From: a virus
Reading direction: 5' to 3' (one strand)
DNA length: 28,268 bases
Virus record (IMG/VR): IMGVR_UViG_3300009788_000256
Coordinates: 1-28,268 of that record
Numbering within the stretch: position 1 is the first letter of the stretch; every line of letters starts with the position of its first letter. Made by a program: the position numbers and the translations under genes. Shown here one piece after another: positions 1 through 23,173 of this stretch. The notes beneath the pieces are model-generated. The model did no database searches. It saw only the letters and a program-made list of their open reading frames with translations, and had not been told where the DNA came from.

Positions 1-221
1 AATGAATTGTTCGGCTTGTTGGTTCCAAGCAACCGCGCACACGCGCTGTCGTAAATTGCTCGCGCGTTATCGTTGAGATTTTCAACTCTCAACAACGGGC
101 TTGGATTAAAGTAATCGTACATCCGGCAAAGCCTGCGGTATTCATCGCTATTCTGCCCGCCGTGACAATCTGAAAGCGCGAGAAACCACGCTTCAACAAT
201 ATCGAATCGGTTAAAGTACAT
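1..221 (-). CDS. small phage protein, runs off left edge
   Basis: An ATG at 221 follows a strong GGAGG ribosome binding site and the frame stays open to the window edge, giving 73 codons without a stop. The protein starts MYFNRFDIVEAWFLALSDCH and continues with HGGQNSDEYRRLCRMY and FNPSPLLRVENL. From memory this resembles a small unknown protein common in phage accessory regions (pattern HGGQ.S..Y..L, then PSPLL...ENL). It has no signal peptide or membrane segment and its function is unknown. Its leader TGGAGGTTCCC is the same as those of the genes starting at 728 and 928, which suggests common translational control in this cluster. The 3' end is missing only because the window stops. Confidence 0.75.
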   Translation of the reverse strand, partial: MYFNRFDIVEAWFLALSDCHGGQNSDEYRRLCRMYDYFNPSPLLRVENLNDNARAIYDSACARLLGTNKPNNS

Positions 222-345
222 GGGAACCTCCATTGAAAGTGTTCGTTGCGTACAAAAAGTGGGCCAAGTTTACCGACTGATTCGCGAGTCTGTCGCGAAT
301 GTTTACCGCAGGCGAACGGTCGGCAAAAACTCCGAACCGTTGCAC
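211..345 (-). CDS. possible tiny ORF, weakly supported
   Basis: A GTG-initiated frame of 44 residues (VQRFGVFADRSPAVNIRDRL and onward) ends 8 bases inside the next gene. No good ribosome binding site precedes it. The stretch also contains a perfect inverted repeat (280-300) inside direct repeats, which fits a regulatory spacer equally well. It is listed because it is the only frame open across the 167-base gap between 221 and 389. Its function is unknown. Confidence 0.2.
   Translation of the reverse strand: MQRFGVFADRSPAVNIRDRLANQSVNLAHFLYATNTFNGGSHVL
280..300. repeat. perfect inverted repeat flanked by direct repeats
   Basis: ATTCGCGA at 280-287 and TCGCGAAT at 293-300 form a perfect 8-bp inverted repeat around the 5-base loop GTCTG. 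Direct repeats GTTTACCG lie on both sides, at 268-275 and 301-308. The arrangement suits an operator or an RNA hairpin in the leader of the gene starting at 221. No function can be assigned. Confidence 0.5.
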
Positions 346-388
346 GAGGCAGGGTTTCTCGGCCCCTAGTTTCTACGCAATGTCGAAC

Positions 389-574
389 TTAGTCAGGATA
401 AGGATGATCCCAACTTTCGAGATCGTCCCAACTAATTTCTCCATCCTTTGCCATCATATCCGTCCAGTTATTCCAGGCTTCATCCCTGGCAGGGCGGTCA
501 TTGACACCGTAGGTCGCGATGACCTGCGGCAGAACGGATTCTTCGAACATTCGGATCGCTTCGGCTCTAGTCAT
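389..574 (-). CDS. small phage protein of the WNNWTDM type
   Basis: This 61-residue acidic protein begins MTRAEAIRMFEESVLPQVIA and contains DEAWNNWTDMMAKDGEISWD. From memory, the pattern of an N-terminal helix, then W..WTD...K.G.I, is a small protein family common in phage accessory regions and of unknown function. The ATG at 574 has the ribosome binding site GGAGGG about 4 bases upstream and overlaps the end of the preceding gene by 8 bases, so the two are probably translationally coupled. It has no membrane segment or signal peptide. Confidence 0.8.
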   Translation of the reverse strand: MTRAEAIRMFEESVLPQVIATYGVNDRPARDEAWNNWTDMMAKDGEISWDDLESWDHPYPD

Positions 575-728
575 TCAACCCTCCACTATTAAGAGCGAGA
601 GCGCGAGCGTCCGCGCTATCCCTCGAATCAAGAATCGCGACCGCGTTTCCGCGCACACGATCAACAATGATAAAGACCGGCGCATATCTACCGGCCATCA
701 CGATCACTCTAAATCGATTGCTCATCAT
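567..728 (-). CDS. small unknown protein, paralogue of next gene upstream
   Basis: A 53-residue frame reads MMSNRFRVIVMAGRYAPVFI, then IVDRVRGNAVAILDSRDSAD. It aligns with the 67-residue product of 725-928: both start M..(K/N)RFRV, then GR(H/Y).P.FI.VD. The two genes are adjacent paralogues. The ATG at 728 overlaps the preceding stop (ATGA) and has GGAGG 6 bases upstream; a second ATG follows directly at 725. The 3' end overlaps the 389-574 gene. Function unknown. The good start signal, coupling at both ends and an aligned paralogue support it as a real gene. Confidence 0.75.
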   Translation of the reverse strand: MMSNRFRVIVMAGRYAPVFIIVDRVRGNAVAILDSRDSADARALALNSGGLND

Positions 729-928
729 AGGGAACCTCCACTAGAATCAGCGTCAAAACCAAACGCTGAGTTAAGAAAATTCGCGCTCTTTTCAGCGCCC
801 TTCTTTGTTCCGCAAACAATAGCGTCAACGCCGTCGCCGTTATTCTTGCGAGGCGAATGATCAACTACGATAAACATGGGGCCATGCCGACCCTCTTTCC
901 TTACGACTCTAAACCTTTTTGTATTCAT
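725..928 (-). CDS. small unknown protein (RFRV...FIVVD family)
   Basis: This 67-residue protein starts MNTKRFRVVRKEGRHGPMFI and continues VVDHSPRKNNGDGVDAIVCG. It is basic at the N-terminus and has no membrane segment. Its N-terminal half matches the adjacent 53-residue protein, pointing to a tandem gene duplication. The ATG at 928 follows the leader TGGAGGTTCCCT, which is repeated before the gene at 728 and nearly so before 221. Its stop overlaps the next start. A small hairpin with A and T tracts lies immediately upstream (940-970). Function unknown. Confidence 0.75.
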   Translation of the reverse strand: MNTKRFRVVRKEGRHGPMFIVVDHSPRKNNGDGVDAIVCGTKKGAEKSANFLNSAFGFDADSSGGSL

Positions 929-939
929 AGGGAACCTCC

Positions 940-970
940 AAAAACAGCAGAGCGGTATGCTCTACTTTTT
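940..970. terminator. small hairpin with A/T tracts, possible terminator
   Basis: AGAGC (949-953) and GCTCT (959-963) form a 5-bp stem with a 5-base loop. Five A bases precede it (940-944) and five T bases follow (966-970), so on either strand the hairpin is followed by a T run. It sits directly before the ribosome binding site of the gene starting at 928. The stem is short, so this could be a weak terminator or a leader hairpin. Confidence 0.3.
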
Positions 971-1025
971 GCAATGGTGCCGAAGCGTGTTATTCAACTC
1001 CGTTGAGATCGCGTGCAACCGTTAA

Positions 1026-1266
1026 GACGATAAAATGTACCTTATGGTTTGACGTTCACATTTCGCATCAGTTGATCGCCTCCGCCCGGATACGAATTAT
1101 CAATAGGCGGAAAGCCTGCGATTGTTCCATCAGCACTATATAATGCGCAACCTATGAGACGATGAAATGTACCCCACGGTTTGACGTTCACATTTCGCAT
1201 CAGTTAAGCGCCTCCACCCGGACACGAATTATCAATAGGTGGAAAGCCTGCGATTGTTCCATCAGC
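1026..1266. repeat. two 109-bp direct repeats, 132 bp apart
   Basis: 1026-1134 and 1158-1266 are the same length and differ at 9 of 109 positions by eye (about 92% identity). On the minus strand both encode DGTIAGFPPIDNS and MRNVNVKP. The upstream copy ends its glycine run with a stop (GCTTAA) where the other reads GATCAA; the downstream copy has TAA where the other has TGG after NVKP. The pattern is an imperfect tandem duplication in which each copy has lost a different part of the reading frame. Confidence 0.85.
1042..1200 (-). CDS. tiny unknown ORF bounded by repeated motif
   Basis: A 52-residue frame starts MRNVNVKPWGTFHRLIGCAL, continues YSADGTIAGFPPIDNSYPGG, and ends with a second MRNVNVKP before the stop. 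Start and end coincide with matching parts of two 109-bp direct repeats, so the ORF spans one repeat unit. GGAGG lies 10 bases before the ATG at 1200. In the upstream copy the corresponding frame (1204-1269) has no start and ends early (...CPGGGA stop), so it looks like a decayed or truncated paralogue. This could be a genuine tiny gene or the remnant of a tandem-repeat protein. Function unknown. Confidence 0.45.
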   Translation of the reverse strand: MRNVNVKPWGTFHRLIGCALYSADGTIAGFPPIDNSYPGGGDQLMRNVNVKP

Positions 1267-1303
1267 GCATCACGAGTTCTCGTAAGCGTCGCTGCACCAT
1301 TCC

Positions 1304-1342
1304 AAAAAATAGAGCGCGGGCCGAACCGATCAAGCGCGGCCC
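1304..1342 (-). terminator. possible second terminator hairpin
   Basis: On the minus strand GGGCCG (1342-1337) pairs with CGGCCC (1323-1318). A run of six T (1309-1304) follows 8 bases after the stem. The distance to the T run is long for an intrinsic terminator, and alternative GCGC pairings exist. It lies just after the better terminator of the putative structured RNA and could back it up. Confidence 0.3.
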
Positions 1343-1350
1343 AACGCCCC

Positions 1351-1380
1351 TATATATAAACGATGCAAAATCGCATCGCT
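1351..1380 (-). terminator. intrinsic terminator of the putative ncRNA
   Basis: On the minus strand AGCGATGC (1380-1373) pairs with GCATCGTT (1366-1359): 8 bp including one G-U, with the 6-base loop GATTTT. The tail is TTTATATATA. It is A/T-rich though not a pure U run. It closes the 360-nt non-coding stretch that starts at the promoter near 1718-1746. Confidence 0.55.
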
Positions 1381-1651
1381 AATTTAATGATTGACAACGC
1401 GGCAATTTTCCGCGTCGTTTCTTACAACCCCTTCCAGTCATCCGACTCCCGCTCTTTACTTCCCTTGCCAGATTTGGTTTCCGAAAGCCTCTTTTACTTT
1501 CGGCCTTTGTCGGTCCGTTTCATCGGTCCCGCGCGGCCCGCTTACTTGGCTCTCTCGTTGGCTTTCGATGTTTCCGGCTTTTCGAGGTCGTCGCCTTTCA
1601 GCCTTTCCGCCTCTCTGGTATCTCTCTTTCGAGAGCGGGTTTTCAGGTTTA

Positions 1652-1665
1652 AGTTTTCAAAGAAC
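1652..1665 (-). promoter_or_regulatory. boxA-like antitermination element
   Basis: The minus strand reads GTTCTTTGAAAACT, about 45 nt after the predicted transcription start. It closely resembles the boxA of Bacillus-type rRNA leaders (TGTTCTTTGAAAACT from memory), which recruits NusB and S10 to stop early termination of untranslated RNA. It sits just after a short hairpin. The match may be chance, but its place at the start of a long untranslated RNA is where boxA would be expected. Confidence 0.4.
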
Positions 1666-1717
1666 TCCGGGTTTTTGATTCCCGTTCGAGGTGTCTCTTA
1701 TGTTGCCCTCTATATAT

Positions 1718-1746
1718 AATATACATCCTGGCGGCCCAATTGTCAA
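1718..1746 (-). promoter_or_regulatory. strong sigma70-type promoter for the ncRNA
   Basis: On the minus strand the -35 box is a perfect TTGACA (1746-1741), the spacer is 17 bases, and the -10 box is TATATT (1723-1718), one mismatch from consensus. An A/T-rich tract follows, and the first suitable start purines are at 1711-1709. This is the best promoter in the window. It reads into the structured non-coding stretch and towards the small genes on the left. Confidence 0.75.
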
Positions 1747-1757
1747 GTTTTGCTGAC

Positions 1758-1945
1758 GCTGTAACCTATTGAGCCGCAAGGGTTTATACGATTGTGTCGA
1801 ATACTTCTGACACTCTAACTTACTGATTGCAAAGGGGTTACGGGTGCTTGCGCCTTTGGCGCTCTAACTCGTTGATTATAAAGGGGTTGCTGCCCCCGTG
1901 CCCCTGTCGCTCTAACCTACTGATTACAAAGGGGTTACGGGGTCA
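1758..1945. repeat. four-copy array of about 50-bp repeats
   Basis: Repeats begin with TAAC at 1762, 1816, 1865 and 1913 (spacing 54, 49 and 48). The consensus is roughly CTCTAAC, a few bases, TGATT, two or three bases, AAAGGGGTTACGGG. Units 2 and 4 are most alike and share AAAGGGGTTACGGG exactly; unit 1 is the most divergent. Most units are also imperfect inverted repeats (TAACC...GGTTA). Spacing near five helical turns resembles iterons of a replication origin or an array of protein-binding sites. The array lies just upstream of the strong minus-strand promoter. No gene was found between 1747 and 2094. Confidence 0.7.
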
Positions 1946-2094
1946 CACCAATAGCGGTAGAAGCCCTGGAAGTCAAGGAAAAACAGCCGGAATCGACCGA
2001 TGGGAGCGCGCTCAAGGGGAATGAACGATCACCGTGGCAAACGGACGATCCCGGCTCCGAACCGTGGCCCACGCCAAACCACGGACCCCCGCGC

Positions 2095-2427
2095 CTACTT
2101 CTTAGAGAGCGCCTCGACCAATCCGGAGTCGGCGACGCCCTGGCCGAGATTGAAAAGCGGGATCGCGAGTTTTATGACTGGCGCGATTGGCGGAAAAAGA
2201 GCGCCCGCCGCGATGCCCGCAATTGAGAGCCAGAACTTGCGGCTCTTCCACTTCTTCTTTTTGCCCTGTGCTTTTCCGTTCGAATCGGCAACGCCCTGGC
2301 CGATTACGAATGAACCTCCAATTGCCGTCGCTGTTTCCATGATGCCGGGATCGACAACGGACGCCGCTATCGTTCCCACCGTCATCAGCACTTTTCTTGA
2401 CGTGAATAAACTCTTGAGAAAATTCAT
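2095..2427 (-). CDS. holin-like membrane protein with internal duplication
   Basis: This 110-residue protein contains two tandem copies of one module: residues 9-49 (TSRKVLMTVGTIAAS...IGQGVADS) and 61-101 (KSRKFWLSIAGIAAG...LGQGVADS). Each has a short basic start, a hydrophobic segment, a proline, a second hydrophobic segment and the conserved GQGVADS end. From memory, single-copy proteins of the form KSRKFW...GQGIADAGK occur in phage lysis regions. The ATG at 2427 has AGGAG 7 bases upstream. It follows the endolysin and a membrane/coiled-coil gene, so it probably acts in the host inner membrane as a holin or lysis accessory protein. The assignment rests on membrane pattern and position. Confidence 0.65.
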   Translation of the reverse strand: MNFLKSLFTSRKVLMTVGTIAASVVDPGIMETATAIGGSFVIGQGVADSNGKAQGKKKKWKSRKFWLSIAGIAAGALFPPIAPVIKLAIPLFNLGQGVADSGLVEALSKK

Positions 2428-2445
2428 TTGGTTGCTCCTTTGGTT

Positions 2446-2751
2446 TTACTTGTTGCTGCGCTGCTGAAACAAAACACCTTCGATCTTACCTAGCCGTTCC
2501 CGTATATCGGCGAGCTTTTCTGTTTGTCGGTTGATCGAACTCCATTGCTCTGCATTTCCATCCTGCATCCGTTCAAGCCGCTGAGTATTATTTCCGATGC
2601 GCAATTCGCAATCACTTTTCATGTGTTTAAGATCACTCTTTAACGTCGCATAATGGTTCTTGATTAGAGCTTGCCTAGATCCATACGCATAGACGATGCT
2701 CAAGATTGGTAGTATGATTGCCGCCGCCTTTATTGCGATATCCCAACTCAT
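2446..2751 (-). CDS. membrane-anchored coiled-coil protein (spanin/DUF2730-like)
   Basis: The 101-residue product begins MSWDIAIKAAAIILPILSIV with one membrane segment (about residues 7-24). A long polar helix follows with probable coiled coil from about residue 35 to 95 (KSDLKHMKSDC, ERMQDGNAEQWSSI, RERLGKIEGVL). This shape fits an inner-membrane spanin or a Mu gp25/DUF2730-like protein found in lysis cassettes. Its ATG overlaps the endolysin stop (ATGA), so it is coupled to endolysin translation. No lipoprotein partner (outer spanin) was seen nearby, so the spanin role is an inference. Confidence 0.6.
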   Translation of the reverse strand: MSWDIAIKAAAIILPILSIVYAYGSRQALIKNHYATLKSDLKHMKSDCELRIGNNTQRLERMQDGNAEQWSSINRQTEKLADIRERLGKIEGVLFQQRSNK

Positions 2752-3248
2752 CGAACTCTCTTTTCGTTGTAGAATATCAATGCCTTATCGATGTATTGTT
2801 CTGGCACGATTCGATCTCGCGGCGTGCCGCTATTATACGCATCGAAAATATCTATTGGTTTTTCGTCTGAGAGTTTATCGAGAACTCTCCGGTTGATCAG
2901 CTTCACAACGTACCGGAGGGAAATATCAGGGTCGCGAAGCTCGATAGGATCTCCGCGAAACCCAAGCTCGTATGCGGTGATGAATAGGATTTGAAACGAA
3001 CCGAAAGATGAGTGCGCGAGGCATCCCCATTTTTGTGATTGCTCTCTGACGATCCGGCTTCGCTTGTAGTAATGCCCGCCGTAATGGTAAGCACCCTCAT
3101 GGTGCGTTGCATCGTTCTGTTTTCCGTATGTACTTTCAACGTTCGCGATGGCCCAAAGAATTCGACCGGGATCAATCTTCGATCCGATGTCGATGTGGAG
3201 TTTATCTTTCCAGTAGTTGATCGAGCCGTCGAGCTTTTCTTTTGTCAT
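2748..3248 (-). CDS. endolysin, lytic transglycosylase/lysozyme type
   Basis: A 166-residue cell-wall hydrolase. It shows the layout of the SLT/goose-lysozyme fold: WAIANVESTYG with probable catalytic Glu38, then SSFGSFQI at 81-87 (the usual S.G..QI motif), and DAYNSG at 136-141 (the usual AYN.G motif). It would cleave glycan strands between MurNAc and GlcNAc. It has no signal peptide, so release would need a holin. The chosen start is the ATG at 3248, which overlaps the previous stop (ATGA) and follows GGGAG; a longer frame to 3404 would run antisense-like through the upstream gene and is Arg-rich nonsense. It begins the lysis cassette. Confidence 0.8.
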   Translation of the reverse strand: MTKEKLDGSINYWKDKLHIDIGSKIDPGRILWAIANVESTYGKQNDATHHEGAYHYGGHYYKRSRIVREQSQKWGCLAHSSFGSFQILFITAYELGFRGDPIELRDPDISLRYVVKLINRRVLDKLSDEKPIDIFDAYNSGTPRDRIVPEQYIDKALIFYNEKRVR

Positions 3249-4084
3249 AGCTCCCTGTCCACGAATGGCCGCACTACGAAATGGTCGAGTAGCGCGTCGC
3301 CTGCGGTAACGCCAGAGGCGATCTTGACTTTGAACACGGGCCAGAGAACCGTTCCTAGACTGACGCCGCTCAAGGTCATGTCGCTGATTGGTTGCTCGAT
3401 CCAAAGCCCGCTTCCATCCTTGTCGTAATAGGTCCGGAAAATATCTGTAACGCCTACCTGTGAATCAAGAACTATTCGAACGCTCGTGTATGTCGTGCCG
3501 TTGTCATTGTTCCCTGCCACGAAATCAGATGATACCTTGTCACCGCCAGTATTAAGGCCGTGAGTTATGAATCTCCAATTGGTTCCCGTTGAACCTTTCT
3601 GCAAACCAAAGAACTCCGACTCGTCTGCGCTGTTAGAGTTCCCGCTCTGGAATCCGAAGAGGATATCGTGGTCAGTGAAATTGATGTTCGAGCTAAACCT
3701 GAACTCGATCATTGCCGGTGCATAAAGGGAGAGGTCGCCGAATTCATACGTTGCATCACTGAACCCAACACCACTTGTTTGGTCAACGTCGATGACGGCC
3801 CAATTCGGTGACGCCGTTCCCGTTGTGAGCTTGCAGAGATGCTTGTTGCCGCTCGCGTATGTCGCGCTCGCTCCGGTCCCCATGTTTTCACGGAGCCAGA
3901 ACGGACGCACATTGGAATTGAAATGCGAGCCGATAAAAGCGTTCGCGTATCCACCAACGACCGGCGCTATGAGATTGTTGTTGGATTTCAACTTCTGCCA
4001 GAGAAGTAAATCCTGTGCAACGTCTGACCCGGCCTCGGTTGCGGGATCTAAGAGTCTGAAAACATCATCAGGATCTACGGCCAT
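3245..4084 (-). CDS. fibre-like structural protein, concanavalin-type region
   Basis: A 279-residue protein starting MAVDPDDVFRLLDPATEAGS. It is rich in Gly, Ser, Asn and aromatic residues with alternating beta-strand pattern: MIEFRFSSNINFTDHDILFG, then FFGLQKGSTGTNWRF and YTSVRIVLDSQ. This looks like a lectin-type beta-sandwich, typical of phage tail fibre or receptor-binding proteins. It lies directly after another fibre-like gene and before the endolysin, the usual place for host-recognition proteins. The start at 4084 was preferred over 4225 because the longer form overlaps the previous gene by 150 bases, while 4084 overlaps by 10 and has GGAAG just before it. The role is inferred. Confidence 0.6.
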   Translation of the reverse strand: MAVDPDDVFRLLDPATEAGSDVAQDLLLWQKLKSNNNLIAPVVGGYANAFIGSHFNSNVRPFWLRENMGTGASATYASGNKHLCKLTTGTASPNWAVIDVDQTSGVGFSDATYEFGDLSLYAPAMIEFRFSSNINFTDHDILFGFQSGNSNSADESEFFGLQKGSTGTNWRFITHGLNTGGDKVSSDFVAGNNDNGTTYTSVRIVLDSQVGVTDIFRTYYDKDGSGLWIEQPISDMTLSGVSLGTVLWPVFKVKIASGVTAGDALLDHFVVRPFVDREL

Positions 4085-8180: not shown

Positions 8181-10786
8181 TACGCACCCGTATTCAAAAC
8201 ACCGTTATCGTCAATGACGCCATTGAGTTCATCCGTGATCGAACGCGCAAATTCATCCATGCCACCGAGAATCGTTCCCTGATTAATTACTGTAACCTGC
8301 AACACCTGTTGCGAAGGGAGACTCGCTTGCGTTGTTGCTGCTGCCGGCGTTGCTGCTGCCGCCGATGCTGCCGGTTGAGCCGCACCGCCGCCGCCGCCGC
8401 CGAACACTCGACCAACCGTGATTGCTGCGGTTCCTGCGGCGATCTTCATAGCGCCAGCGGCGGCAAAAGCTGCCGATGACGGCCCCGGAATGATCGCCTT
8501 CGCGAGATCAATGAAGCCCTCCATGATTGCAGATTGACCTGTCGCTACGAGAGCTTCGCCGATGAACCTTTTTATGTTCTTCGCTTTCAGTGACGCGGCG
8601 ATCCCCTCTTGAGCGACCGACCGAGCGAACGCAGAGCCGAACTGCCGAACCGATCCCTGCGCAATATCTAGGGCAAGGCCGATTGCTTTAATTTTCCTTA
8701 TTGCTGCATCTTGCGAATCTCCGCCCTCTCTCATCGTCTCGTACAATTGGAGTAGGAACTCCCGAAGCTCCCTCGACTTGTCGCCGACAACTGTTAGGAT
8801 CGTGACCCATGCTTCCATGCTGGCAATTTGCTCTTCTGTCAGCACAAGCCCTTTCGCCCTTGCTGTCGCTACCGCGTTTTCAACATCTGCGAGAGTCTGA
8901 ATGTTGGCGATGACAGGAAGTAAACCAGCTTCATTCCAGAGAATTAGCAATTGTGTCGATGCAAGCGTCTGAAAATCAAACGATTTCTGTTGCTGCTGCT
9001 GATTGATTAACAGGTTCAACGCTTCTCGCCTCGACTGATTGAGTTCAGCTTGCGCGCGCTCACTTTCTGCTATCGCTTTCCTTCTTTCTTCTTCCTGCTC
9101 GCGAACCTTTATCTTGAGTAGTTCTCTCTGCCCTACTTCATCCTGTAGTTTTTGAATTCGCTTATCGGCGAGCTTGAGAGATTCTGCTGACGCATCCATT
9201 TCGAGCTTGAGTGATGCGGTTATGATTCCCATGTTACGTTCCGCAGCCTCTCGCGCTTCGAGCGACTTAATGATCAACGCCTCGAACGGCGCTGGAATTC
9301 GCAGGCCAAGCAATTGGAACTCTTCGCCGACCTTCTTTAAGTCTTTCGACAAGAGAATCAGCGCTCGTTCTTCTAGCTGCGAAGAGAACGCCGCCATGCC
9401 ATCGAATGATTGCTTGACCGCCTCGGCAAGTGTATTTAATCGAGTTTCAAGCTCTCCAACCGCGCCGCCTTCTTTTATTTTTTTTAATAGTTCCGCGAGC
9501 AGCGTGTCGTTCGTTCCAAATAGAGAATTTTGTTGCTTGATTAATGAAATGTTATCCCTGACAAATTTATTGTGAGCTTCGACCGCATTGTTCAATTCCG
9601 TGTATGATGTGCCGAGCTTCACGTTTATCTTTTCCAGTAGTGTCGTTTCTCTTCGAAGCTGTGCTTCCTCTTGCCCTGCCTCATTCATTCTTCGCTTTGC
9701 TTCTTCCCATAGATCGGGCATCATTCGCCCGAGTCTGATTAACTGAAACACTAGAAATGATACCGCAGCGATAAGCCCCGCGAGTAGAGCAGGCGTCCCG
9801 GCGAACGCTATGTTGATCGTGATCCCTAGTGCAGCAAACGCAGGGACCAACATGTTAACAACTAGATTTCCTAGCGCGAGCATTACCACCATTATCGCTT
9901 TCCAGCCCGCAGCAATTGACGCAAGTATGGCGGGACCAAACACAAGCGCCATCGTTATTCCAAGCGCGATTAACTGATCCTTGAATTGAATTATGACAGG
10001 GATCGCTCGCTTTGTTATTTCAACCAGCCTTGTGATCCCTTTTATGGTTGGCGTTATCCCTTCGGCGATTAACTTGCCGATCTCTATTTTTAGAGAGAGG
10101 ATCGCCGTGTCGAGTTGAGCAACCGCGCCGCCGTAGGTATTGAGAACTTTCTCTGCGTCACCTGCCGCGAAAGCACCCTCTGTTAAGAATCCATTCAAGA
10201 GCGCTTGTCTAGCGCCGAGCTTCTTTTCCTTCGTGTCGAGATCTTGAATTGTGAATCCAGCCTCTTTCAAAATGACAGAGAGATTTTTCTGGATTCCGGC
10301 GCTGTCAGTGAGAATTGAATTGCGGTTTTTGATTCCCTGCGTTGTACGCTCTACCGCTTGGCCCATCGTAAAAAACGATTGCCGGTTAAATGCTGCGGTG
10401 TCTTTCATCGAACTAAGTAGATCTATCGTCTCTTGTAGGCTGAATCCCTCTGACATCAAATTCTTGAACGCTCTCGTAGCGTTCGACATCGGGATCAATC
10501 CATCGGCGGTGTATGCTTTCACCGCTGCGGATACATCATCAATGCTCTGTCCGGTGAATTTCGCTACGGATCGCAACCCGATCTGCTGCTCTTCGAATTG
10601 CCTGATCTCGCGGAGGCTTTCACTTACGAATTGCTTGACCGCTTGGAGCGCTTTTTGAAACGACTGTTGTAGCTGAATCCCTATCCCGACGCCCGCAATG
10701 CCTTTGAGCGACGATGTAACCGAGTTGATCGCACCCGAAGCGCGATCCTTCCCGACTATTGTTACTTTCGCGTCTGCGGTCGCCAT
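8180..10786 (-). CDS. tape measure protein
   Basis: An 868-residue protein that sets tail length and is packed inside the tube. Features: an N-terminal helical region (VGKDRASGAINSVTSSLKGI), a block of strongly hydrophobic segments at about residues 270-350, and long coiled coils in the second half (about 505-600, with QQQQQ). The tail is low-complexity, with six Gly and Ala/Pro runs, before a beta-like end. At about 1.5 angstroms per residue it predicts a tail near 130 nm. The ATG at 10786 overlaps the chaperone stop (TGATG) and has GGAG 7 bases upstream; a TTG one codon earlier is less likely. It is the longest gene here and follows the tail chaperone as expected. Confidence 0.95.
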   Translation of the reverse strand: MATADAKVTIVGKDRASGAINSVTSSLKGIAGVGIGIQLQQSFQKALQAVKQFVSESLREIRQFEEQQIGLRSVAKFTGQSIDDVSAAVKAYTADGLIPMSNATRAFKNLMSEGFSLQETIDLLSSMKDTAAFNRQSFFTMGQAVERTTQGIKNRNSILTDSAGIQKNLSVILKEAGFTIQDLDTKEKKLGARQALLNGFLTEGAFAAGDAEKVLNTYGGAVAQLDTAILSLKIEIGKLIAEGITPTIKGITRLVEITKRAIPVIIQFKDQLIALGITMALVFGPAILASIAAGWKAIMVVMLALGNLVVNMLVPAFAALGITINIAFAGTPALLAGLIAAVSFLVFQLIRLGRMMPDLWEEAKRRMNEAGQEEAQLRRETTLLEKINVKLGTSYTELNNAVEAHNKFVRDNISLIKQQNSLFGTNDTLLAELLKKIKEGGAVGELETRLNTLAEAVKQSFDGMAAFSSQLEERALILLSKDLKKVGEEFQLLGLRIPAPFEALIIKSLEAREAAERNMGIITASLKLEMDASAESLKLADKRIQKLQDEVGQRELLKIKVREQEEERRKAIAESERAQAELNQSRREALNLLINQQQQQKSFDFQTLASTQLLILWNEAGLLPVIANIQTLADVENAVATARAKGLVLTEEQIASMEAWVTILTVVGDKSRELREFLLQLYETMREGGDSQDAAIRKIKAIGLALDIAQGSVRQFGSAFARSVAQEGIAASLKAKNIKRFIGEALVATGQSAIMEGFIDLAKAIIPGPSSAAFAAAGAMKIAAGTAAITVGRVFGGGGGGAAQPAASAAAATPAAATTQASLPSQQVLQVTVINQGTILGGMDEFARSITDELNGVIDDNGVLNTGA

Positions 10787-11561
10787 CAAAACGCTCCGGC
10801 GCTTTTGTTATTAAACGATGGGGTAAATTTATTCTTTTCTTCTTGAAATTTATTTTCTTTGATGTTCTTGCTGCGCTCTTCGATAAGAATGATCTTGAGC
10901 GCTTCCCATTCATCGTATTCGAGGTCATCGGGGGCAAACCTACATCCCGCATCAATCATTAACTTTAAGCTCAGTATATGAACGAGGTAATCGCTCATTC
11001 CTCCGGCATCGCCGGAATCATCAAGTGGCGGGCCGTTCTCGCACGAACCGCACGTTGCTTTTCTGTCTTTTGCAGTTTGCCAGATTCCGCAATTACTGAA
11101 TCCAGGGCAACCACCTTCGGAGCGGAAACCAGAACCAGAGATGAACGCTCTAATTTCCGCCGTTAGTTTTTTACTTGCTTCACCGATGGCATCAAGATCT
11201 GGACAACGGTTTGCTTGTGTTCATCGGGGATCATGTCGCGCCAATTTTCCATCGACATGAGTAACCCGTCGGCGGAATCCTCTTTGTCAACCTCGTAACC
11301 TTCGACGTTTTGAATGATCGAATCGTAGAGATCGAGCGCGGCTTTCAATGGATCGCCTTCCCACGCGAGCGTCATATCCTGATTAAGCTCGCCGCCCTCA
11401 ACGTCTTTCATCTTGAGGCCCATTTCGGTTGACATCGTTCGGTTGTATTCGATTCGCTCCTTCGTTGTGTAGGGTCGAACCCTGTGAACGAAAGTTTCCG
11501 CTGGAAATCGGTTGTCTTTGATCTCGATTTCGCGAACCTTCTTTTGGCGTGAAAGATTCAT
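10786..11561 (-). CDS. tail assembly chaperone GT, -1 frameshift fusion
   Basis: Reading 132 codons from 11561, then slipping -1 at AAAAAAC, gives a 258-residue fusion ending at 10786. The -1 frame is open directly from the slip site for 126 codons. It reads LTAEIRAFISGSG, then C-x5-C and C-x2-C (CPGFSNC, CGSC), then MSDYLVHILSLKLMIDAGCR and EYDEWEALKIILIEERSKN. In lambda-like phages such a G/GT pair binds tape measure and tube protein during tail assembly and is not kept in the virion. An independent start at 10998 has GGAGG only 1 base before ATG, too close for good initiation, which favours frameshifting. The paired cysteines in the T part resemble a zinc-binding site. Confidence 0.85.
11121..11172 (-). 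promoter_or_regulatory. -1 ribosomal frameshift site with downstream stem-loop
   Basis: The minus strand reads A-AAA-AAC (11172-11166) in the correct phase of the upstream frame, followed at once by the stop TAA. This is a canonical X-XXY-YYZ slippery heptamer. Five bases on, GGCGGAAA (11161-11154) pairs with TTTCCGCT (11128-11121): 8 bp with one G-U at the base. An inner AGAG/CTCT stem is possible within the loop. Spacing and structure fit a stimulatory hairpin. Confidence 0.85.
11163..11561 (-). CDS. tail assembly chaperone G (unshifted product)
   Basis: A 132-residue protein starting MNLSRQKKVREIEIKDNRFP with an acidic, helical second half (LAWEGDPLKAALDLYDSIIQ, MENWRDMIPDEHKQTVVQIL). The ATG at 11561 has AGGGG close upstream. 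It lies between tail tube and tape measure genes, the fixed place of the first tail chaperone. Most ribosomes should end at the TAA at 11163; a minority slip to make the GT fusion. It would coat the tape measure before the tube polymerises. Confidence 0.85.
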   Translation of the reverse strand: MNLSRQKKVREIEIKDNRFPAETFVHRVRPYTTKERIEYNRTMSTEMGLKMKDVEGGELNQDMTLAWEGDPLKAALDLYDSIIQNVEGYEVDKEDSADGLLMSMENWRDMIPDEHKQTVVQILMPSVKQVKN

Positions 11562-11571
11562 GGTTCCCCTT

Positions 11572-12606
11572 TTATGCTGCCGCTAGGTGAGCGAGATCAA
11601 CGGCATCGTTCGTGATGACTTCGAGCGGCCCTTGATCTGCTGCCGTCCAGAACGCATTGCCAGCGACGTTGAAAATGAGTTGGTTGTTGTCGCTACCCTT
11701 CGGAGTCGCCGTGAATTTGTAGTTATCAATGTTGAGCGTGACATCGTGGTTAACATCTTCGGTTGAGCAAGTGATTACGACCGGCGCGTTGGTTCCCGCT
11801 TCCATCAGCGCTTGGAAATCGAGCGTTGCGGTTGGCGGTGCGAGTATAGTCAACGCGAGTTCCACGCTACGCCGTCCGAAGAACATTCGCTCTCTGAACT
11901 TCCCGAAGTCGCCCGCCGTCCCGAGAACGTATCCGTCATCGAGCATCAGGTTATTCGAGATTTTGAGTGACCAACCCTTGATGTAATCCTTGAGGTTGAC
12001 CGCGTTAACCGTCATATCGACGTTTGACCCGCGCAGGTATTCATCTGCCGGCGTGATTGCAGGGATCGCAAGCGCGTTCACCGCGACCTGACCATTACCA
12101 ACTAAGCTGCAAGTCAACTGCACTCTGCCCTTGCCGCTTGCCGTCAACGTTACCTCGTTAACGCACATGCCGGTATATTTTCGGTTCAGGAGCGAGCTTA
12201 CGCCAACGATCTCTTCGATGATTGTTGCCGATGGTAGCTGCGTTCCATCGACGTTTTCATCCATGAACTTGAGCGTGTGTGTCCACGGATCGACAGCACC
12301 CGCAACCGCCGCCGTTCCCATCGCAAATGCGAACGCCCAACCAACCCAAAACACCGAAGCGTCCCACGTCCGCGTCATCTGCGATGACCATGTGTGAATC
12401 ACTTGCGAGTCGGGGAAGTCATGACCTCTACCAATCTGCTCTTCGTCGGTGATGATCTCGGGAATTCGCTCACCCATGTCCGGACCTTTGAATAGGCCCG
12501 CTCTTATGAGGTCTGGATCGCCAACCGCTGTCCCGTAGGCCGCTTCTGCCATACGAGACGTTAGCCACTTAACATCCCAATCGCGGAAATCTGATGTGAT
12601 CGCCAA
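11572..12606 (-). CDS. major tail tube protein
   Basis: A 344-residue protein just before the tail chaperone, the standard position for the tube subunit. It has beta-rich segments (RVQLTCSLVGNGQVAVNALA, YIKGWSLKISNNLMLDDGYV, SVELALTILAPPTATLDFQA) and a C-terminal NNQLIFNVAGNAFWTA typical of tube proteins that end with a conserved strand. It lacks the features of a contractile sheath, supporting siphovirus morphology. The start is TTG at 12606 with GGAGG 5 bases upstream, directly after the TAA of the preceding gene. It is longer than many tube proteins, perhaps through an extra surface domain. Confidence 0.8.
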   Translation of the reverse strand: MAITSDFRDWDVKWLTSRMAEAAYGTAVGDPDLIRAGLFKGPDMGERIPEIITDEEQIGRGHDFPDSQVIHTWSSQMTRTWDASVFWVGWAFAFAMGTAAVAGAVDPWTHTLKFMDENVDGTQLPSATIIEEIVGVSSLLNRKYTGMCVNEVTLTASGKGRVQLTCSLVGNGQVAVNALAIPAITPADEYLRGSNVDMTVNAVNLKDYIKGWSLKISNNLMLDDGYVLGTAGDFGKFRERMFFGRRSVELALTILAPPTATLDFQALMEAGTNAPVVITCSTEDVNHDVTLNIDNYKFTATPKGSDNNQLIFNVAGNAFWTAADQGPLEVITNDAVDLAHLAAA

Positions 12607-12792
12607 TTATTCCTCCGGCTCCGCGAGCGAGACATCATCATCATTGATGATCTCGAACTCACCCGCAAGAAATCGATTGTAGATATGATCGGGCACTTCG
12701 ACTTCATCACCTGAAACATCGTAGGTGACGCCTCCGGCATAGACTGACCCGCCGCCGCCTTTGATTCGCCTAGCTCTGATTAGTTTTGTCAT
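12607..12792 (-). CDS. small DUF2635-like protein
   Basis: A 61-residue protein, MTKLIRARRIKGGGGSVYAG, then GDEVEVPDHIYNRFLAGEFE and an acidic tail. The small beta core with VP...Y.R.L..GE resembles Mu gp38/DUF2635-type proteins found between neck and tail genes. It has AGGGG before its ATG and abuts the tube gene. It may assist joining of tail to head, but no function is established from the sequence. Confidence 0.6.
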   Translation of the reverse strand: MTKLIRARRIKGGGGSVYAGGVTYDVSGDEVEVPDHIYNRFLAGEFEIINDDDVSLAEPEE

Positions 12793-12800
12793 AACAACCC

Positions 12801-13292
12801 CTACGTTATCGGGCCGATGTAATCGAATTGCGTCATGAAAATCATTTGATACGCCGAAGCGTGCGTTACGCTTAGATTAATCCTCGAATATTCTGTAGGA
12901 ATTAACGGCTGATCTCCCTGAAATAATTGAACACTGAGTAAACGTTTCTCGATGTCCATGATCATTTGCCGAGTTCCGACGTGCATTACTGGATCGGCTG
13001 GATCTCCAGCGGCGGAATCCTCCGGCCCTGCGTAATTGGCATCATAGGCAATGATCACCATCGAGAGTTCTTGGTTATGGCTCCATGCGTTATCTTCGTC
13101 CGTTCTCGGAAACGTGCTACCAGAAAAGAATGTCCAGATGCGCGGCCCGTCGATGATCTCTCCGCGTTCTTGGAGAGCATCAAGTTCTCCTTCGTAAGAT
13201 TTTACATCCTCGAATAGATAGGCGAGCCGCGCAGGATCATTTAACTTTGCAATGATTTTCTCTTCGACATCTTTAATGCTATGCCTTGCCAC
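12801..13292 (-). CDS. neck/tail terminator protein, DUF1834 (Mu gp37-like)
   Basis: A 163-residue protein. It has the layout of Mu gp37/DUF1834 proteins: an N-terminal helix (VEEKIIAKLNDPARLAYLFE), then KSYEGELDAL, a beta core (IWTFFSGSTFP, LSMVIIAYDA), RQMIMDIEKRLLSVQLFQGD and a C-terminal strand pair (INLSVTHASAYQMIFMTQFD). Such proteins cap the tail tube where it meets the head. The start is GTG at 13292, overlapping the upstream gene by 14 bases, with a modest AGG upstream. Confidence 0.7.
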   Translation of the reverse strand: MARHSIKDVEEKIIAKLNDPARLAYLFEDVKSYEGELDALQERGEIIDGPRIWTFFSGSTFPRTDEDNAWSHNQELSMVIIAYDANYAGPEDSAAGDPADPVMHVGTRQMIMDIEKRLLSVQLFQGDQPLIPTEYSRINLSVTHASAYQMIFMTQFDYIGPIT

Positions 13293-13794
13293 GCTTCACA
13301 TACCTTTCAATGTTCGCAACGAGATCGTCCATGTGTCGTTTCGACGGCCAAGCAAACGGACGCGCCGGAACGAACACGGTTGCTGCGCTTTGATTTCCGA
13401 ACGGCTTGGTTTTGTATCCTGTCATGTGGAAATCACCATAGAACTTGAAGCGCAGCGTGAGCGCATCGCGCCGAACTGTTGCTCGCATACTTCGCCTGAG
13501 AGCGCCGCCTTTCTTCGCGCGTTTTCTGCCGCGAGCGGCGCGGCCTCCAAGCAAGACCTTCGCATGTCCCTTGTGTGCAATTGTGGCAGGGCGGTTCGGA
13601 ACCCAACGACTTTTCGCCCCGCTTCCGAATTTCGGCGGGGCGACGGCTGAATCGAAGCGCTTGTCGATATCTTTCAGGATTTGTTTTGCTGATTTACTGA
13701 ACGCCGGTTGGAGGTGACGCAAGCGAAACTTTATTCCCCTCAAACTTTTGTCAATCGATGAGGTATCCACCTTCGCGCTGATCTCTACCGGCAT
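13279..13794 (-). CDS. virion morphogenesis protein, gpG/gpS-like tail completion
   Basis: A 171-residue basic protein, MPVEISAKVDTSSIDKSLRG. It shows the pattern of the phage virion morphogenesis family (Mu gpG, P2 gpS): an N-terminal helix, W.PN (RWVPNRPATIA), GALRRSMRATV, then HMTGYKTKPFGNQS and VFVPARPFAWPS near the C-terminus. These proteins help join head and tail. The ATG overlaps the previous stop (TGATG). The central region (GGRAARGRKRAKKGGALRRS) is unusually basic. Confidence 0.75.
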   Translation of the reverse strand: MPVEISAKVDTSSIDKSLRGIKFRLRHLQPAFSKSAKQILKDIDKRFDSAVAPPKFGSGAKSRWVPNRPATIAHKGHAKVLLGGRAARGRKRAKKGGALRRSMRATVRRDALTLRFKFYGDFHMTGYKTKPFGNQSAATVFVPARPFAWPSKRHMDDLVANIERYVKRGKA

Positions 13795-14270
13795 CAGAAA
13801 CCAAATCCATCATCAAAGCTACCGAACGTTCCCGCTTTCTGGCTATCAGTCAATCCACCTTCGTAGGCTCCCCGCCATTCTCGATCTTTCTCGAAGTCTC
13901 GATTCGTTTTCGGCAACCCTTGTTCTTGACTCAGACCAGGGATCACCGCTTCGCCCTCAGAAACAGCTTTGAGGAATTCAATTGCGCCGTCGTATAGAAC
14001 CTGTACGTTGTCCGGAGGTAGAGATCCCCTCCGAGCAAACATCATATAGAACGTGATGTTGTTTGAGAGCGTGATTAGGATAACCGGAGTCGGGGAAACG
14101 GGCGTGGTGTACCGTCTCCCGATCCAGCCATCAATTAATGCGTCCGCATTTGCGATGATTTCGAGCAGAACTCCGGCATCTGCCGCACCATCCGAATCAT
14201 CGTCCGTTAACATGCGGATCTTGTCTTTGGAGAATAGGTTCTCCAAGTTTGTTTGCGTAGTATAAGCCAT
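13794..14270 (-). CDS. head-tail connector, DUF1320 (Mu gp36-like)
   Basis: A 158-residue protein with the usual DUF1320 signature: MAYTTQTNLENLFSKDKIRM, then LTDDDSDGAADAGVLLEIIA, NADALIDGWIGRRYTTPVSP and a helical YMMFARRG region. Mu gp36-type proteins form the ring between portal and tail. It follows the capsid gene, and its stop overlaps the next start. The ribosome binding site (GGGGA) is moderate. Confidence 0.8.
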   Translation of the reverse strand: MAYTTQTNLENLFSKDKIRMLTDDDSDGAADAGVLLEIIANADALIDGWIGRRYTTPVSPTPVILITLSNNITFYMMFARRGSLPPDNVQVLYDGAIEFLKAVSEGEAVIPGLSQEQGLPKTNRDFEKDREWRGAYEGGLTDSQKAGTFGSFDDGFGF

Positions 14271-14300
14271 AACGAAATCCCCTAATTCGAAATGACTATT

Positions 14301-15260
14301 CTACGATACGACGTTCTGGTAGCAGAACCCCGCAAGTCGATCAACAACTTTCTGATCGTAATACTTGTGGGTGTGAAAGAGTGTTGACCGTCTGCCGCCT
14401 GTCGCGCGTTCCCGCTCAACGATCATGCCGCTCTGCCCGCCTGCCGCCGTCCAGAGGAACGTATAGGCAAACGCAACGGTGTTGAGGCCCGGTGAAGGCG
14501 GAACCCAAAACAGCCAGAAGTGCTTTCCGAGAATGAAATCGAGCGCGCGGGTTGCCGCGAAATCCGCAGAGTTCAAGAGCGAATCCGCGATGACAACCTT
14601 ATCTAGCTCGAAAATGGTAGCGAGGTTCGCGTCGGTCATTCTCGGGCCAGCCGGAGAATTCACGAACTTGAATCGGTCGATCATGTCCGGAGCGTTCTTG
14701 ATCGCGTTCGCGGTGTGGCGAGTGCATAGACCAACGTTCGGAACTTCGCCACTATTCTTTAGAGTTGTGACCTTTGCGGTATCGACTCTTTTAACCGCAT
14801 CGTTTGTGGCTACGTCCCACTTGGAGGCGGTTTCGTCGGTCGTATTCGCGCCATTGAAGGTCGTTGTGAAATCCTGAACGATGTCTCGAAAAGCAAGCTC
14901 TTGAACGAGCAAGATTTTCGACGTTGCCAATTCGGTTGTTCGGATTTCGGCCTGAACTGCCGGATCGGAGTTGTCACGAACTTCGTCAGGAAGAACGCCC
15001 GTTCGGGAGTGCCCCTCTGCCGAATAGTTGTCCTGCGAGAGTGACCAGCGGGTTTCCTTCGCAGTATCTCCGGGCCGACGTAGATCGTCCGCGTCATCCC
15101 GCAGATGCTCGTGATCGTGAATGAAATACTTGTCGGATTTCTTCGCGACTCCGACACGAGGAAAGATCTCTTCGGCGACATAGCGGTTATCGCGATACTT
15201 CACGCTAACCTGCGTCATCGCCGCGTCAATGTGTACTGTTTCGATGGTTGGGACCGCCAT
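14301..15260 (-). CDS. major capsid protein
   Basis: A 319-residue protein expected to have the HK97 fold. The start MAVPTIETVHIDAAMTQVSV, then YRDNRYVAEEIFPRVGVAKK and DKYFIHDHEH, is the usual opening of Mu-like and related capsid proteins (Y....EIFP.V.V....Y). The remainder has the helix-strand alternation of that fold and ends in a beta region (YYDQKVVDRLAGFCYQNVVS). It has the best ribosome binding site of the operon (GGAGG, spacing 8) and sits directly after the decoration protein. Length is normal for the family. Confidence 0.9.
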   Translation of the reverse strand: MAVPTIETVHIDAAMTQVSVKYRDNRYVAEEIFPRVGVAKKSDKYFIHDHEHLRDDADDLRRPGDTAKETRWSLSQDNYSAEGHSRTGVLPDEVRDNSDPAVQAEIRTTELATSKILLVQELAFRDIVQDFTTTFNGANTTDETASKWDVATNDAVKRVDTAKVTTLKNSGEVPNVGLCTRHTANAIKNAPDMIDRFKFVNSPAGPRMTDANLATIFELDKVVIADSLLNSADFAATRALDFILGKHFWLFWVPPSPGLNTVAFAYTFLWTAAGGQSGMIVERERATGGRRSTLFHTHKYYDQKVVDRLAGFCYQNVVS

Positions 15261-15311
15261 TCTAACAACCTCCGGTTATTCGATTCTCTTTTTCTGCGAT
15301 GTCAGATTAGG

Positions 15312-15695
15312 TTATGTGGCCGCAATCGTCATCGGGTTAACGAAGATCATGATGTCATCGCCATCTGCCGCTGCGAGAGTTCTTGCGATTCCAACGACTC
15401 GAACCGCAGCACCGGCAGCAGAGATAAGTTTTCCTGCCGTTGACGCTTCGACAAGATCTCCAACGGTAATCGCGCCGCCTGCCGTGGCCCAACAAAGGCC
15501 GAGCATCATGACTACGCATCCTTCACCAACGATTGCTTGCGCTTCGAGCGCAATACCGCAAATCGAATCCGTCTCTGCGGTTGCAACGTCGATCTCGTCG
15601 TTGTTCGCGGTGTACTTAACCGCTTGCCCTGCTGTGATCGCTGCGGCTACCTTGAAGGTATCCGACAAAATCTGTTTTAGCGCTCCACCACTCAT
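15312..15695 (-). CDS. head decoration protein, DUF2190-like
   Basis: A 127-residue protein rich in Ala, Gly, Val and Thr: FKVAAAITAGQAVKYTANND, ICGIALEAQAIVGEGCVVMM, GDLVEASTAGKLISA. The pattern of AAIT.GQ.V and GIA...A..G.....V...G matches DUF2190-type capsid cement proteins that trimerise on the head surface. The ATG at 15695 has GGAGG 8 bases upstream. It is placed between protease/scaffold and capsid, as usual. Confidence 0.8.
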   Translation of the reverse strand: MSGGALKQILSDTFKVAAAITAGQAVKYTANNDEIDVATAETDSICGIALEAQAIVGEGCVVMMLGLCWATAGGAITVGDLVEASTAGKLISAAGAAVRVVGIARTLAAADGDDIMIFVNPMTIAAT

Positions 15696-15744
15696 CTCTC
15701 AAACCTCCGAAAATCGGTTTTGATTTTCTATCGCTTGTTCTGGA

Positions 15745-16467
15745 TTAGCTCGCGTTTCTCTTCGCTTGATGCACGCGGATCAGAGCTTCGCTGAACGAGA
15801 TCTTTTCCTTCGCGGAAAGCTCGCTCGCCTGCTCTGCATCACTGACGCCCTCGTACTCGATCTTGATTCCACTCTCGTTCTTTTCGGAGAACTTCATCGG
15901 GAGCTTGGAGACTTTCTTTTTCTTGTTGTCGGGATCATCGTTGTCTTTGATGATCTCTTCGGTTGTCGGGTTGAGATTTTCCTCTACGCACTTTTGGAAA
16001 AATGCCAGAGGCGTCATCTCGTCGCCCTTTTCCGCGAACTTAATCGCTTCGTTGTCGGTGTCGGAGAACGCGAGCATCTCCATGAACTTCACGAGGCCGA
16101 GATCCTTGACCTTCGGAGAGAGGCGCTTGCTCTTGATCTGCGTATCGACCCAATCAGTGATTCCTTTCTTCGTAGATTCCACGCGGAACTTGTGGTCGGG
16201 ATTCTTTTCAAGCTCCGACATCCTGACCGTTTCCTCTTTCGCGTTCATGGCATCGGCGATCTTTGAAATGCGTTCGCTTCCCGCCATCTTATCGAGCAAT
16301 TCCTCGACCTCTGGCTCACTCATTGCTTCGAGCGCTTCATCAATCGAGAGATCGCCATCAGGATCGGGTTCCGGTTCGCTGAATTTCTTGCCAGCGAAAA
16401 TTCCCTTGATTCCCTCGATCAGCTTACTGAATCCAGAATCCAAGTCTGCCTTTGTGATTCCGTCCAT
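15745..16467 (-). CDS. nested scaffold protein (internal start in protease gene)
   Basis: An in-frame ATG at 16467 (residue 153 of the protease) is preceded by GGGAG with spacing 9, a strong signal inside a gene. It would make a 240-residue protein from the C-terminal part: MDGITKADLDSGFSKLIEGI, an acidic linker (SEPEPDPDGDLSIDEALEAM) and long charged helices, as expected for a capsid scaffold. In Mu, gene I overlaps an in-frame scaffold Z in the same way. The scaffold would guide capsid assembly and then be cut by the protease. Separate translation is inferred. Confidence 0.6.
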   Translation of the reverse strand: MDGITKADLDSGFSKLIEGIKGIFAGKKFSEPEPDPDGDLSIDEALEAMSEPEVEELLDKMAGSERISKIADAMNAKEETVRMSELEKNPDHKFRVESTKKGITDWVDTQIKSKRLSPKVKDLGLVKFMEMLAFSDTDNEAIKFAEKGDEMTPLAFFQKCVEENLNPTTEEIIKDNDDPDNKKKKVSKLPMKFSEKNESGIKIEYEGVSDAEQASELSAKEKISFSEALIRVHQAKRNAS

Positions 16468-16923: not shown

Positions 16924-16952
16924 TAACTGCCTCCGATCCTAGTCTCGATATC

Positions 16953-17270
16953 CTATTTCTTTTTGTCAAGGGCTTTCGCCATTGCTTTCAACCCGTTGCG
17001 CTTTTTCTTCCGCGACCGGCGACGCTTCCGGTTGCCAAGCGCCGTTGGTATGCTGACAGATTCGAGGCCCGACTTTTTCCCGTTCTCACTGAACCGCAAT
17101 TTTCTCATTCTCTCCCTTTCAATCGCTGCTGCGCGTTGAGTTATGCAATCGGGACATGTGCATTGATCGGCGAACTGCGTTCTGCTGAGATAGAAATTCT
17201 TCGTAAAACTGCGCTGCTGCGCGCGCTGTTTTTTTGTCCAATCTCGGGGCCTGCCTTTTTGCCACGGCAT
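16953..17270 (-). CDS. small, highly basic unknown protein
   Basis: A 105-residue protein with about 32 Lys/Arg (30%). It starts MPWQKGRPRDWTKKQRAQQR, has a C-x-C-x2-C cluster (CTCPDC, residues about 37-42), and ends with NRKRRRSRKKKRNGLK and a KALDKKK tail. The ATG overlaps the stop of the previous basic protein (TAATG), so the two are translated together. It could bind DNA or RNA, perhaps in the head. No family was recognised. A long open frame on the plus strand here is only the shadow of this Arg/Lys coding. Confidence 0.6.
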   Translation of the reverse strand: MPWQKGRPRDWTKKQRAQQRSFTKNFYLSRTQFADQCTCPDCITQRAAAIERERMRKLRFSENGKKSGLESVSIPTALGNRKRRRSRKKKRNGLKAMAKALDKKK

Positions 17271-20170: not shown

Positions 20171-20181
20171 GCTGCGCTCCT

Positions 20182-23171: not shown

Positions 23172-23173
23172 CG

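What the first reader, a model, noticed from the sequence alone, without database searches (positions are those of the whole stretch)
1351..1746. Putative structured phage RNA of about 360 nt with its own promoter and terminator
A near-consensus promoter (TTGACA, 17 bases, TATATT) reads into a non-coding, purine-rich stretch that ends in a terminator-like hairpin. The RNA carries about 13 GAAA motifs and several clean helices: CUCUC-GAAA-GAGAG, CCGAAAG/CUUUCGG, AGUC-GGAU-GACU and a 9-bp stem. No frame on the minus strand makes a sensible protein. Large phage RNAs such as GOLLD and ROOL are known, but this one is shorter and was not recognised. It could be a new RNA class or an antitermination leader. 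The combination of expression signals and helices is seen; the function is inferred.
Basis: partly seen in the sequence, partly recalled or inferred. Interest (0 to 1): 0.85.

Follow-up and report, generated by a model that had tools for sequence, protein, structure and literature searches.

The report
Phage RNA with rRNA-style boxA
A phage contig carries a strong promoter that reads into an untranslated stretch starting with the same short antitermination signal (boxA) that bacteria use on ribosomal RNA, which suggests that the phage borrows the host's rRNA machinery to make a long untranslated leader or RNA.

Summary
The promoter stands out: 1746-1718 (minus) is the only site matching 11 of 12 consensus bases in the window (shuffles: 0.1). 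The RNA strand is not visibly coding, and the 118-aa plus-strand ORF over it has no coding signal. The helices exist, but folding is only moderately better than chance (z -2.5 to -2.8; -1.6 without the two 3' hairpins) and the GAAA count is mostly composition. The terminator is weak. No homologue was found, so covariation could not be tested.

At 1665-1653 the RNA carries an exact GUUCUUUGAAAAC, an rrn-type boxA (expected 1.2e-5 in the region), 46 nt from the predicted start and just after a weak hairpin. The same 13-mer stands 50 nt before 16S in a Nitrospirae genome. Promoter-boxA leaders recur in unrelated phage contigs, often with a hairpin before boxA. Some lead into GOLLD RNA, a 23-tRNA array or an unknown highly structured RNA, others into protein genes.

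Best reading: a boxA antitermination leader feeding the small genes at 928-1, or a boxA-protected discrete RNA. A new GOLLD/ROOL-like class is unproven.

The parts
1753..1941 (.). Four direct repeats (38 nt, spacing 54, 49, 48), roughly palindromic TAAC...GTTA; they abut the -35 box. Possible operators or iterons.
   Evidence: close forms occur once each in five other phage contigs
1718..1746 (-). Sigma-70-type promoter TTGACA-17-TATATT
   Evidence: 11 of 12 matches; only such site in the window, 0.1 expected
1351..1711 (-). Untranslated RNA: from the predicted start to the last hairpin and its broken U tract
   Evidence: no minus ORF of 60 aa; plus ORF scores as non-coding; fold z -2.8
1668..1684 (-). 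Small hairpin CGGG-AAUCAAAAA-CCCG just upstream of boxA (boxB-like position in rrn leaders)
   Evidence: the 34 nt before boxA fold better than only 87% of shuffles
1653..1665 (-). boxA, GUUCUUUGAAAAC (identity with one other phage leader, L004, extends to 1647)
   Evidence: only exact match in the window; expected 1.2e-5 in the region; same 13-mer 50 nt before 16S in L293
1622..1635 (-). CUCUC-GAAA-GAGAG tetraloop hairpin
1481..1503 (-). CCGAAAG/CUUUCGG helix
   Evidence: read; in the minimum-energy fold of the whole RNA these bases pair elsewhere
1394..1418 (-). 9-bp stem, first of two 3' hairpins
1351..1380 (-). Terminator-like hairpin CGAUGC-GAUUUU-GCAUCG with UUUAUAUAUA tail (weak)
   Evidence: not called by the terminator scan
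725..928 (-). 67-aa ORF, GGAGG ribosome site; resembles the ORF after it (585-731)
   Evidence: codon score 0.07
389..574 (-). 61-aa gene, phrog_336 (unknown function)
   Evidence: E 1.8e-9; codon score 0.153

Best explanation
It is an rrn-type antitermination leader. A strong promoter makes an untranslated RNA. About 46 nt from its start the nascent RNA shows boxA, and the host NusB-NusE (S10) pair binds it together with NusA and NusG (SuhB where present). The modified polymerase resists Rho along the 450-720 nt that no ribosome covers and so reaches the operon of small genes starting at 928, about 730, 574 and 221 (the last runs off the contig). The hairpins down to 1351 form the structured leader; some transcripts may end or be cut there. 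Shown: promoter, boxA, non-coding stretch, small ORFs downstream with GGAGG sites, and no other promoter-like site on that strand in 1-3000. Inferred: Nus-factor binding, read-through, and any role of the structure.
For: Exact boxA, alone in the window, expected 1.2e-5 in the region. The same 13-mer lies 50 nt upstream of 16S in a Nitrospirae genome (L293). The promoter is unique in the window. In viral contigs the promoter-20..50-boxA pattern gave 24 hits in 19 clusters; 15 of the 24 hits have no ORF of 80 aa over the motif, against 11 of 74 control hits. A hairpin in the 34 nt before boxA beats at least 90% of shuffles in 7 of the 19 clusters and in 0 of 13 control clusters (Fisher 0.025). 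The 7 fall among 13 clusters that I count as intergenic (Fisher 0.005 against controls); on a strict no-ORF rule it is 6 of 11 (0.003). Leaders run into GOLLD (L120, L121, L126, L129, one cluster), a 23-tRNA array (L118), a strongly folded unknown RNA (L112) or protein genes. Minus-strand promoter-like sites in 1-3000: only the one at 1746.
Against: The raw collection count went the other way: the reversed-motif control gave 74 hits against 24. Of these 74, 55 belong to one sequence family, leaving 13 control clusters against 19. The hairpin idea came from looking at the same data, and the window's own hairpin is not significant (p 0.13). About half of the other boxA leaders (6 of 13 clusters) are short and stand right before an ORF, so boxA does not by itself mean a long RNA. 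rrn-type complexes mainly oppose Rho and not intrinsic terminators (recalled), so the 3' hairpins might stop them. The host is unknown. Only 2 of 43 related portal-bearing records hold a GNTCTTTRAAAA site.
Confidence: 0.5

Rival explanations
1. A discrete, functional structured RNA of about 360 nt (GOLLD/ROOL-like in kind, not in family), whose boxA only secures its synthesis; it ends at the 1380-1359 hairpin.
For: Some boxA leaders in other phages do lead into GOLLD, a tRNA array and an unknown strongly folded RNA. Two stacked 3' hairpins; fold z -2.5 to -2.8.
Against: No homologue, hence no covariation; z is -1.6 without the 3' hairpins; terminator not called by the scan; likely gene 420 nt further on.
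Confidence: 0.27
2. An ordinary 5' leader or spacer with a promoter; the boxA match and helices are incidental.
For: Moderate folding score, composition explains most GAAA; no conservation found.
Against: Exact 13-mer at 1.2e-5 expectation in the region, in the expected place after the only strong promoter.
Confidence: 0.14
3. A replication or regulatory region: the repeats at 1753-1941 are iterons or operators and the transcript primes or activates it.
For: Four spaced repeats next to the promoter.
Against: No replication gene was recognised among the 23 reading frames scanned for families, though most had no informative match and the contig is probably incomplete; boxA is not explained by this.
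Confidence: 0.07
4. The plus-strand 118-aa ORF (1363-1719) is the real gene.
For: Open for 118 codons with ATG.
Against: Codon score -0.039 against 0.134 to 0.262 for ten large genes; no PHROGs hit; no tblastn match in phages at E 1.
Confidence: 0.02

Closest known systems
rrn leader antitermination site (boxB-boxA-boxC, NusA/B/E/G, SuhB)
   Same: Exact boxA, small hairpin upstream of boxA (rrn order, recalled), strong promoter, untranslated RNA downstream
   Different: In a phage contig with no rRNA family match; boxC not examined; hairpin weak
Lambdoid nut sites (boxA then boxB, with N protein)
   Same: Phage use of boxA for antitermination (layout recalled)
   Different: A hairpin lies before boxA; another lies about 17 nt after it; no N-like protein was sought
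GOLLD RNA (RF02032)
   Same: Phage RNA; some GOLLD loci also start with hairpin and boxA (L120 cluster, LR745206)
   Different: Window does not match the model, is shorter, and ARAGORN finds no tRNA in the window
ROOL RNA
   Same: Phage-encoded untranslated RNA (passages of PMC12286853)
   Different: No Rfam match in the window; boxA in ROOL loci could not be tested (searches gave no answer)

Membership tests
rrn-type boxA antitermination site | boxA sequence near the 5' end of the transcript | tested here: met
   exact 13-mer at 1665-1653; identical 13-mer 50 nt before 16S in L293; the transcript start itself is predicted, not observed
rrn-type boxA antitermination site | hairpin (boxB) upstream of boxA | tested here: inconclusive
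   CGGG/CCCG 4-bp stem, -7.1 kcal/mol for the 34 nt, p 0.13
rrn-type boxA antitermination site | Binding of NusB-NusE and resistance to Rho | not testable with these tools
   needs experiment
Lambda nut site | boxA followed by boxB hairpin bound by N | tested here: inconclusive
   a GAAA hairpin (1635-1622) lies about 17 nt after boxA, but no N protein was sought
GOLLD (RF02032) | match to covariance model at gathering score | tested here: not met
ROOL and all other Rfam 15 families | match to covariance model | tested here: not met
   only a chance hit at E 3.6 to RF02085 (Yar_1) on the plus strand
New structured RNA class | covarying pairs among homologues | not testable with these tools
   no homologue found

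The most novel reading that the evidence does not exclude
Phages of several unrelated groups place a host rrn-type boxB-boxA site at the 5' end of long untranslated RNAs (some GOLLD loci, a tRNA array, the L112 RNA and the window RNA), borrowing the rRNA antitermination machinery to make them; the window RNA is then an undescribed member of this set, and boxA can be used to find more.
Probability: 0.3. Interest if true: 0.72.

Novelty: new variant of a known kind. Interest (0 to 1): 0.5.

Why it matters
How phages make long untranslated RNAs such as GOLLD without losing them to Rho is, as far as I know, not addressed. A boxA at their 5' end is a direct, testable answer and a handle for finding unannotated phage RNAs. 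I found no held paper that links boxA with GOLLD: the search 'boxA'+'GOLLD' returned 4 papers, all on plants by title, and the word boxA does not occur in the main text of PMC12286853 or PMC10383478 (passages seen). Literature searches on phage boxA were mostly seen as listings only, so earlier reports of phage boxA beyond lambdoid nut sites cannot be excluded; one phage paper in those listings uses the word for a PCR primer (PMC9025141, passages).

Tried and rejected
Rfam on the window and, with lax filters, on 1200-1950: nothing. Homologue hunts: BLAST of 1000-2000 in phages found nothing; BLAST of the RNA alone at E 5 gave 20 Staphylococcus phage records with one 30-nt chance stretch. The exact 19-mer around boxA found two unrelated contigs. 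A protein from the neighbouring gene 2748-3404 found nothing in viral contigs. The portal alone found only the same virus. A portal alignment gave 80 viral loci (the best 80 of 564), of which 79 are other viruses at 37% identity or less. I searched 43 of those 79 records: 16 had matches at E 1, the best 16 nt at E 0.006. It also gave 80 genome loci (best 80 of 123), the top ones in Sumerlaeota and Bacillota; I searched 14 of those 80 genomes, with one 21-nt match at E 0.05. None is a homologue of the RNA. Shared sequence between the window leader and 13 other boxA leaders is limited to boxA and its edge.

Diversity-generating retroelement: considered because of the 120-nt repeats at 1015-1266, rejected because differences between the copies are not confined to A (read off). 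CRISPR: the four repeats are too uneven (66-89%).

A leader-trailer helix like that of L112 was sought in the window: not better than shuffles (-41.7 against a mean of -45.1). L113 at first looked like a long RNA; reading it showed a gene 20 nt after boxA. GOLLD loci found by BLAST independently of boxA: 9 records, 6 fetched. Of the 6, 1 (LR745206) has boxA with one mismatch; 5 have none in the 1.5 kb fetched upstream, nor has a further 2.5 kb of AM24.

The class 'intergenic' (13 clusters) was set by hand: 11 clusters with no ORF of 80 aa over boxA in at least one member, plus L118 and L119 with short antisense ORFs (95, 83 aa). L114 and L127, left out, also have only antisense ORFs (104, 432 aa); with them it is 7 of 15 (Fisher 0.007).

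Full report
WHAT IS THERE. The window is a 28,268-base virus record. Terminase, portal, protease and a minor tail gene run on the minus strand between about 26.5 and 11.6 kb, with further large minus-strand ORFs down to about 2 kb. A second virus contig, L002, is 99.9% identical over window 8536-28192 and does not cover the RNA. Past these comes a non-coding stretch, then small minus-strand ORFs with GGAGG ribosome sites starting at 928, about 730 and 574, and by reading the sequence one at 221 that runs off the contig. The 574-389 gene matches phrog_336, E 1.8e-9; 17 phage records hold relatives, most of them cyanophages.

PROMOTER AND CODING. TTGACA-17-TATATT at 1746-1718 is the only 11-of-12 site in the window, with 0.1 expected. 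No minus ORF of 60 aa lies in 1351-1711. The plus ORF 1363-1719 has a codon score of -0.039; ten large genes score 0.134 to 0.262, and the median of 109 plus-strand open stretches is -0.045. It has no PHROGs or tblastn match. I take it not to be a gene.

STRUCTURE. The named helices exist, but the whole fold is only moderately unusual: z -2.79, opposite strand -3.69; -2.46, and -1.59 without the two 3' hairpins, with 4 of 78 background windows below -2.46. GAAA motifs: 13 against 9.0, 96 of 2000 shuffles at least 13. The 3' terminator was not called by the scan on that strand.

BOXA. The RNA holds GUUCUUUGAAAAC at 1665-1653, 46 nt from the predicted start. It is the only exact copy in the window; the first-order expectation is 1.2e-5 for the region and 8.5e-4 for one strand of the window. 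That this is the rrn boxA rests on recalled knowledge, on the consensus GYTCTTTAANA given for gamma-proteobacteria in PMC5725501 (section 13 read; the window differs from it by one base, G for A), and on a result here. Among 14 genomes of portal-bearing relatives the 13-mer occurs once in each of 6 (reversed control: one match, in 1 of 14). In L293 (Nitrospirae) it lies 50 nt before the 16S start. In L294 (Sumerlaeota) it is 56 bases from a contig end and unresolved. The other four showed no rRNA signature; three of them look like coding sequence to the eye.

THE SAME LAYOUT ELSEWHERE. The exact 19-mer GTTCTTTGAAAACTTAAAC is in two other virus contigs: in what reads as a gene (L003) and before a non-coding stretch of several hundred bases (L004). 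A promoter-20..50-TTCTTTGAAAAC scan gave 24 contigs; the control with the motif reversed gave 74. The raw count is therefore against enrichment. But 55 of the 74 are one sequence family. After clustering there are 19 real and 13 control clusters; 15 of 24 real hits have no ORF of 80 aa over the motif, against 11 of 74 control hits. I count 13 real clusters as intergenic (rule in Tried and rejected). The window is not among the 24, as its spacer is a few bases longer.

HAIRPIN BEFORE BOXA. Seen by eye, then tested on the same set: the 34 nt before boxA fold better than 90% of 300 shuffles in 7 of 19 clusters (L109, L122, L123, L128, L108, L120, L118) and in 0 of 13 controls (Fisher 0.025). All 7 are among the 13 intergenic ones (0.005); the strict rule gives 6 of 11 (0.003); adding L114 and L127 gives 7 of 15 (0.007). 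Folded with boxA and flanks included, L109, L122 and L128 stay strong, while L108, L118 and L120 do not stand out. The window's hairpin has p 0.13.

WHAT FOLLOWS BOXA IN THE 13 CLUSTERS. L120 with L121, L126, L129: GOLLD (RF02032, 314-328 bits) from about 436 nt after boxA; in L120 promoter, boxA, GOLLD and a terminator-like end read as one unit of roughly 900 nt, so boxA is at its 5' end. L118: 23 tRNAs, the first 15 nt after boxA. L112: about 345 untranslated nt, z -5.7 to -6.0, closed by a 28-bp helix, no Rfam match. L008, L123, L128: 240-420 nt before the first likely gene. L007, L108, L109, L113, L116, L119: an ORF within about 100 nt. L122: contig ends. GOLLD loci found without using boxA: 1 of 6 fetched (of 9 found) has it (LR745206, GTTCTTTGAAAT after a 7-bp hairpin, between a tRNA and GOLLD). 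The other 5 do not, including the related LR756502 and four Acinetobacter phages. So boxA is not a constant of GOLLD. Folding of the 360 nt after boxA varies widely among 14 leaders, from z -6.0 (L112) to +1.5 (L119); window -2.6.

READING. The window fits the long-leader group: strong promoter, boxA, 450 nt to the first possible ORF (52 aa, codon score 0.004, doubtful) or 720 nt to the first likely gene. The downstream genes have no other promoter-like site on that strand in 1-3000, which favours read-through over a closed 360-nt unit. Promoter match, boxA match and lack of coding signal are shown; Nus binding, Rho resistance and read-through are inferred.

LITERATURE. Seen: passages and section 13 of PMC5725501; passages of PMC12286853, which says GOLLD and ROOL are phage-encoded, often near tRNA islands, function unknown; passages of PMC9025141 and PMC10383478. 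All others: search listings only. Statements on Nus factors, SuhB and lambda nut layout are otherwise recalled.

Noticed in passing
L112:5980-6335 (minus), IMGVR_UViG_3300018080_000001: A 170-kb virus contig has promoter, boxA and then a strongly folded untranslated stretch of about 340 nt (z -5.7 to -6.0) closed by a 28-bp leader-trailer helix, right before a 118-aa ORF; no Rfam match.
   Followed up: partly
L120:5150-6130, L121, L126, L129: GOLLD RNAs whose transcripts appear to start with promoter, hairpin and exact boxA.
   Followed up: partly
L299:705-740 (LR745206.1): Hairpin plus boxA (one mismatch) between a tRNA and GOLLD in a 635-kb phage; the related LR756502 lacks it.
   Followed up: partly
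L118:3850-7767: Promoter, hairpin and boxA 15 nt before an array of 23 phage tRNA genes.
   Followed up: partly
window 1015-1266: Two 120-nt tandem copies, 90% identical, between the RNA and the small genes.
   Followed up: no
window 585-928: Two neighbouring small ORFs look like paralogues (RFRVxxxxGR..PxFIxVD) with the same GGAGGTTCCC start region.
   Followed up: no
L285:7767, L286:4983; L106 near 1955 (minus): Other phage contigs carry boxA-like sites (GTTCTTTGACAAC, GTTCTTTGAAAA) shortly before a gene start; L285 and L286 also share the window's upstream repeat motif.
   Followed up: no
L008:10600-10900: Several tandem copies of a promoter-bearing repeat ahead of a boxA leader.
   Followed up: no
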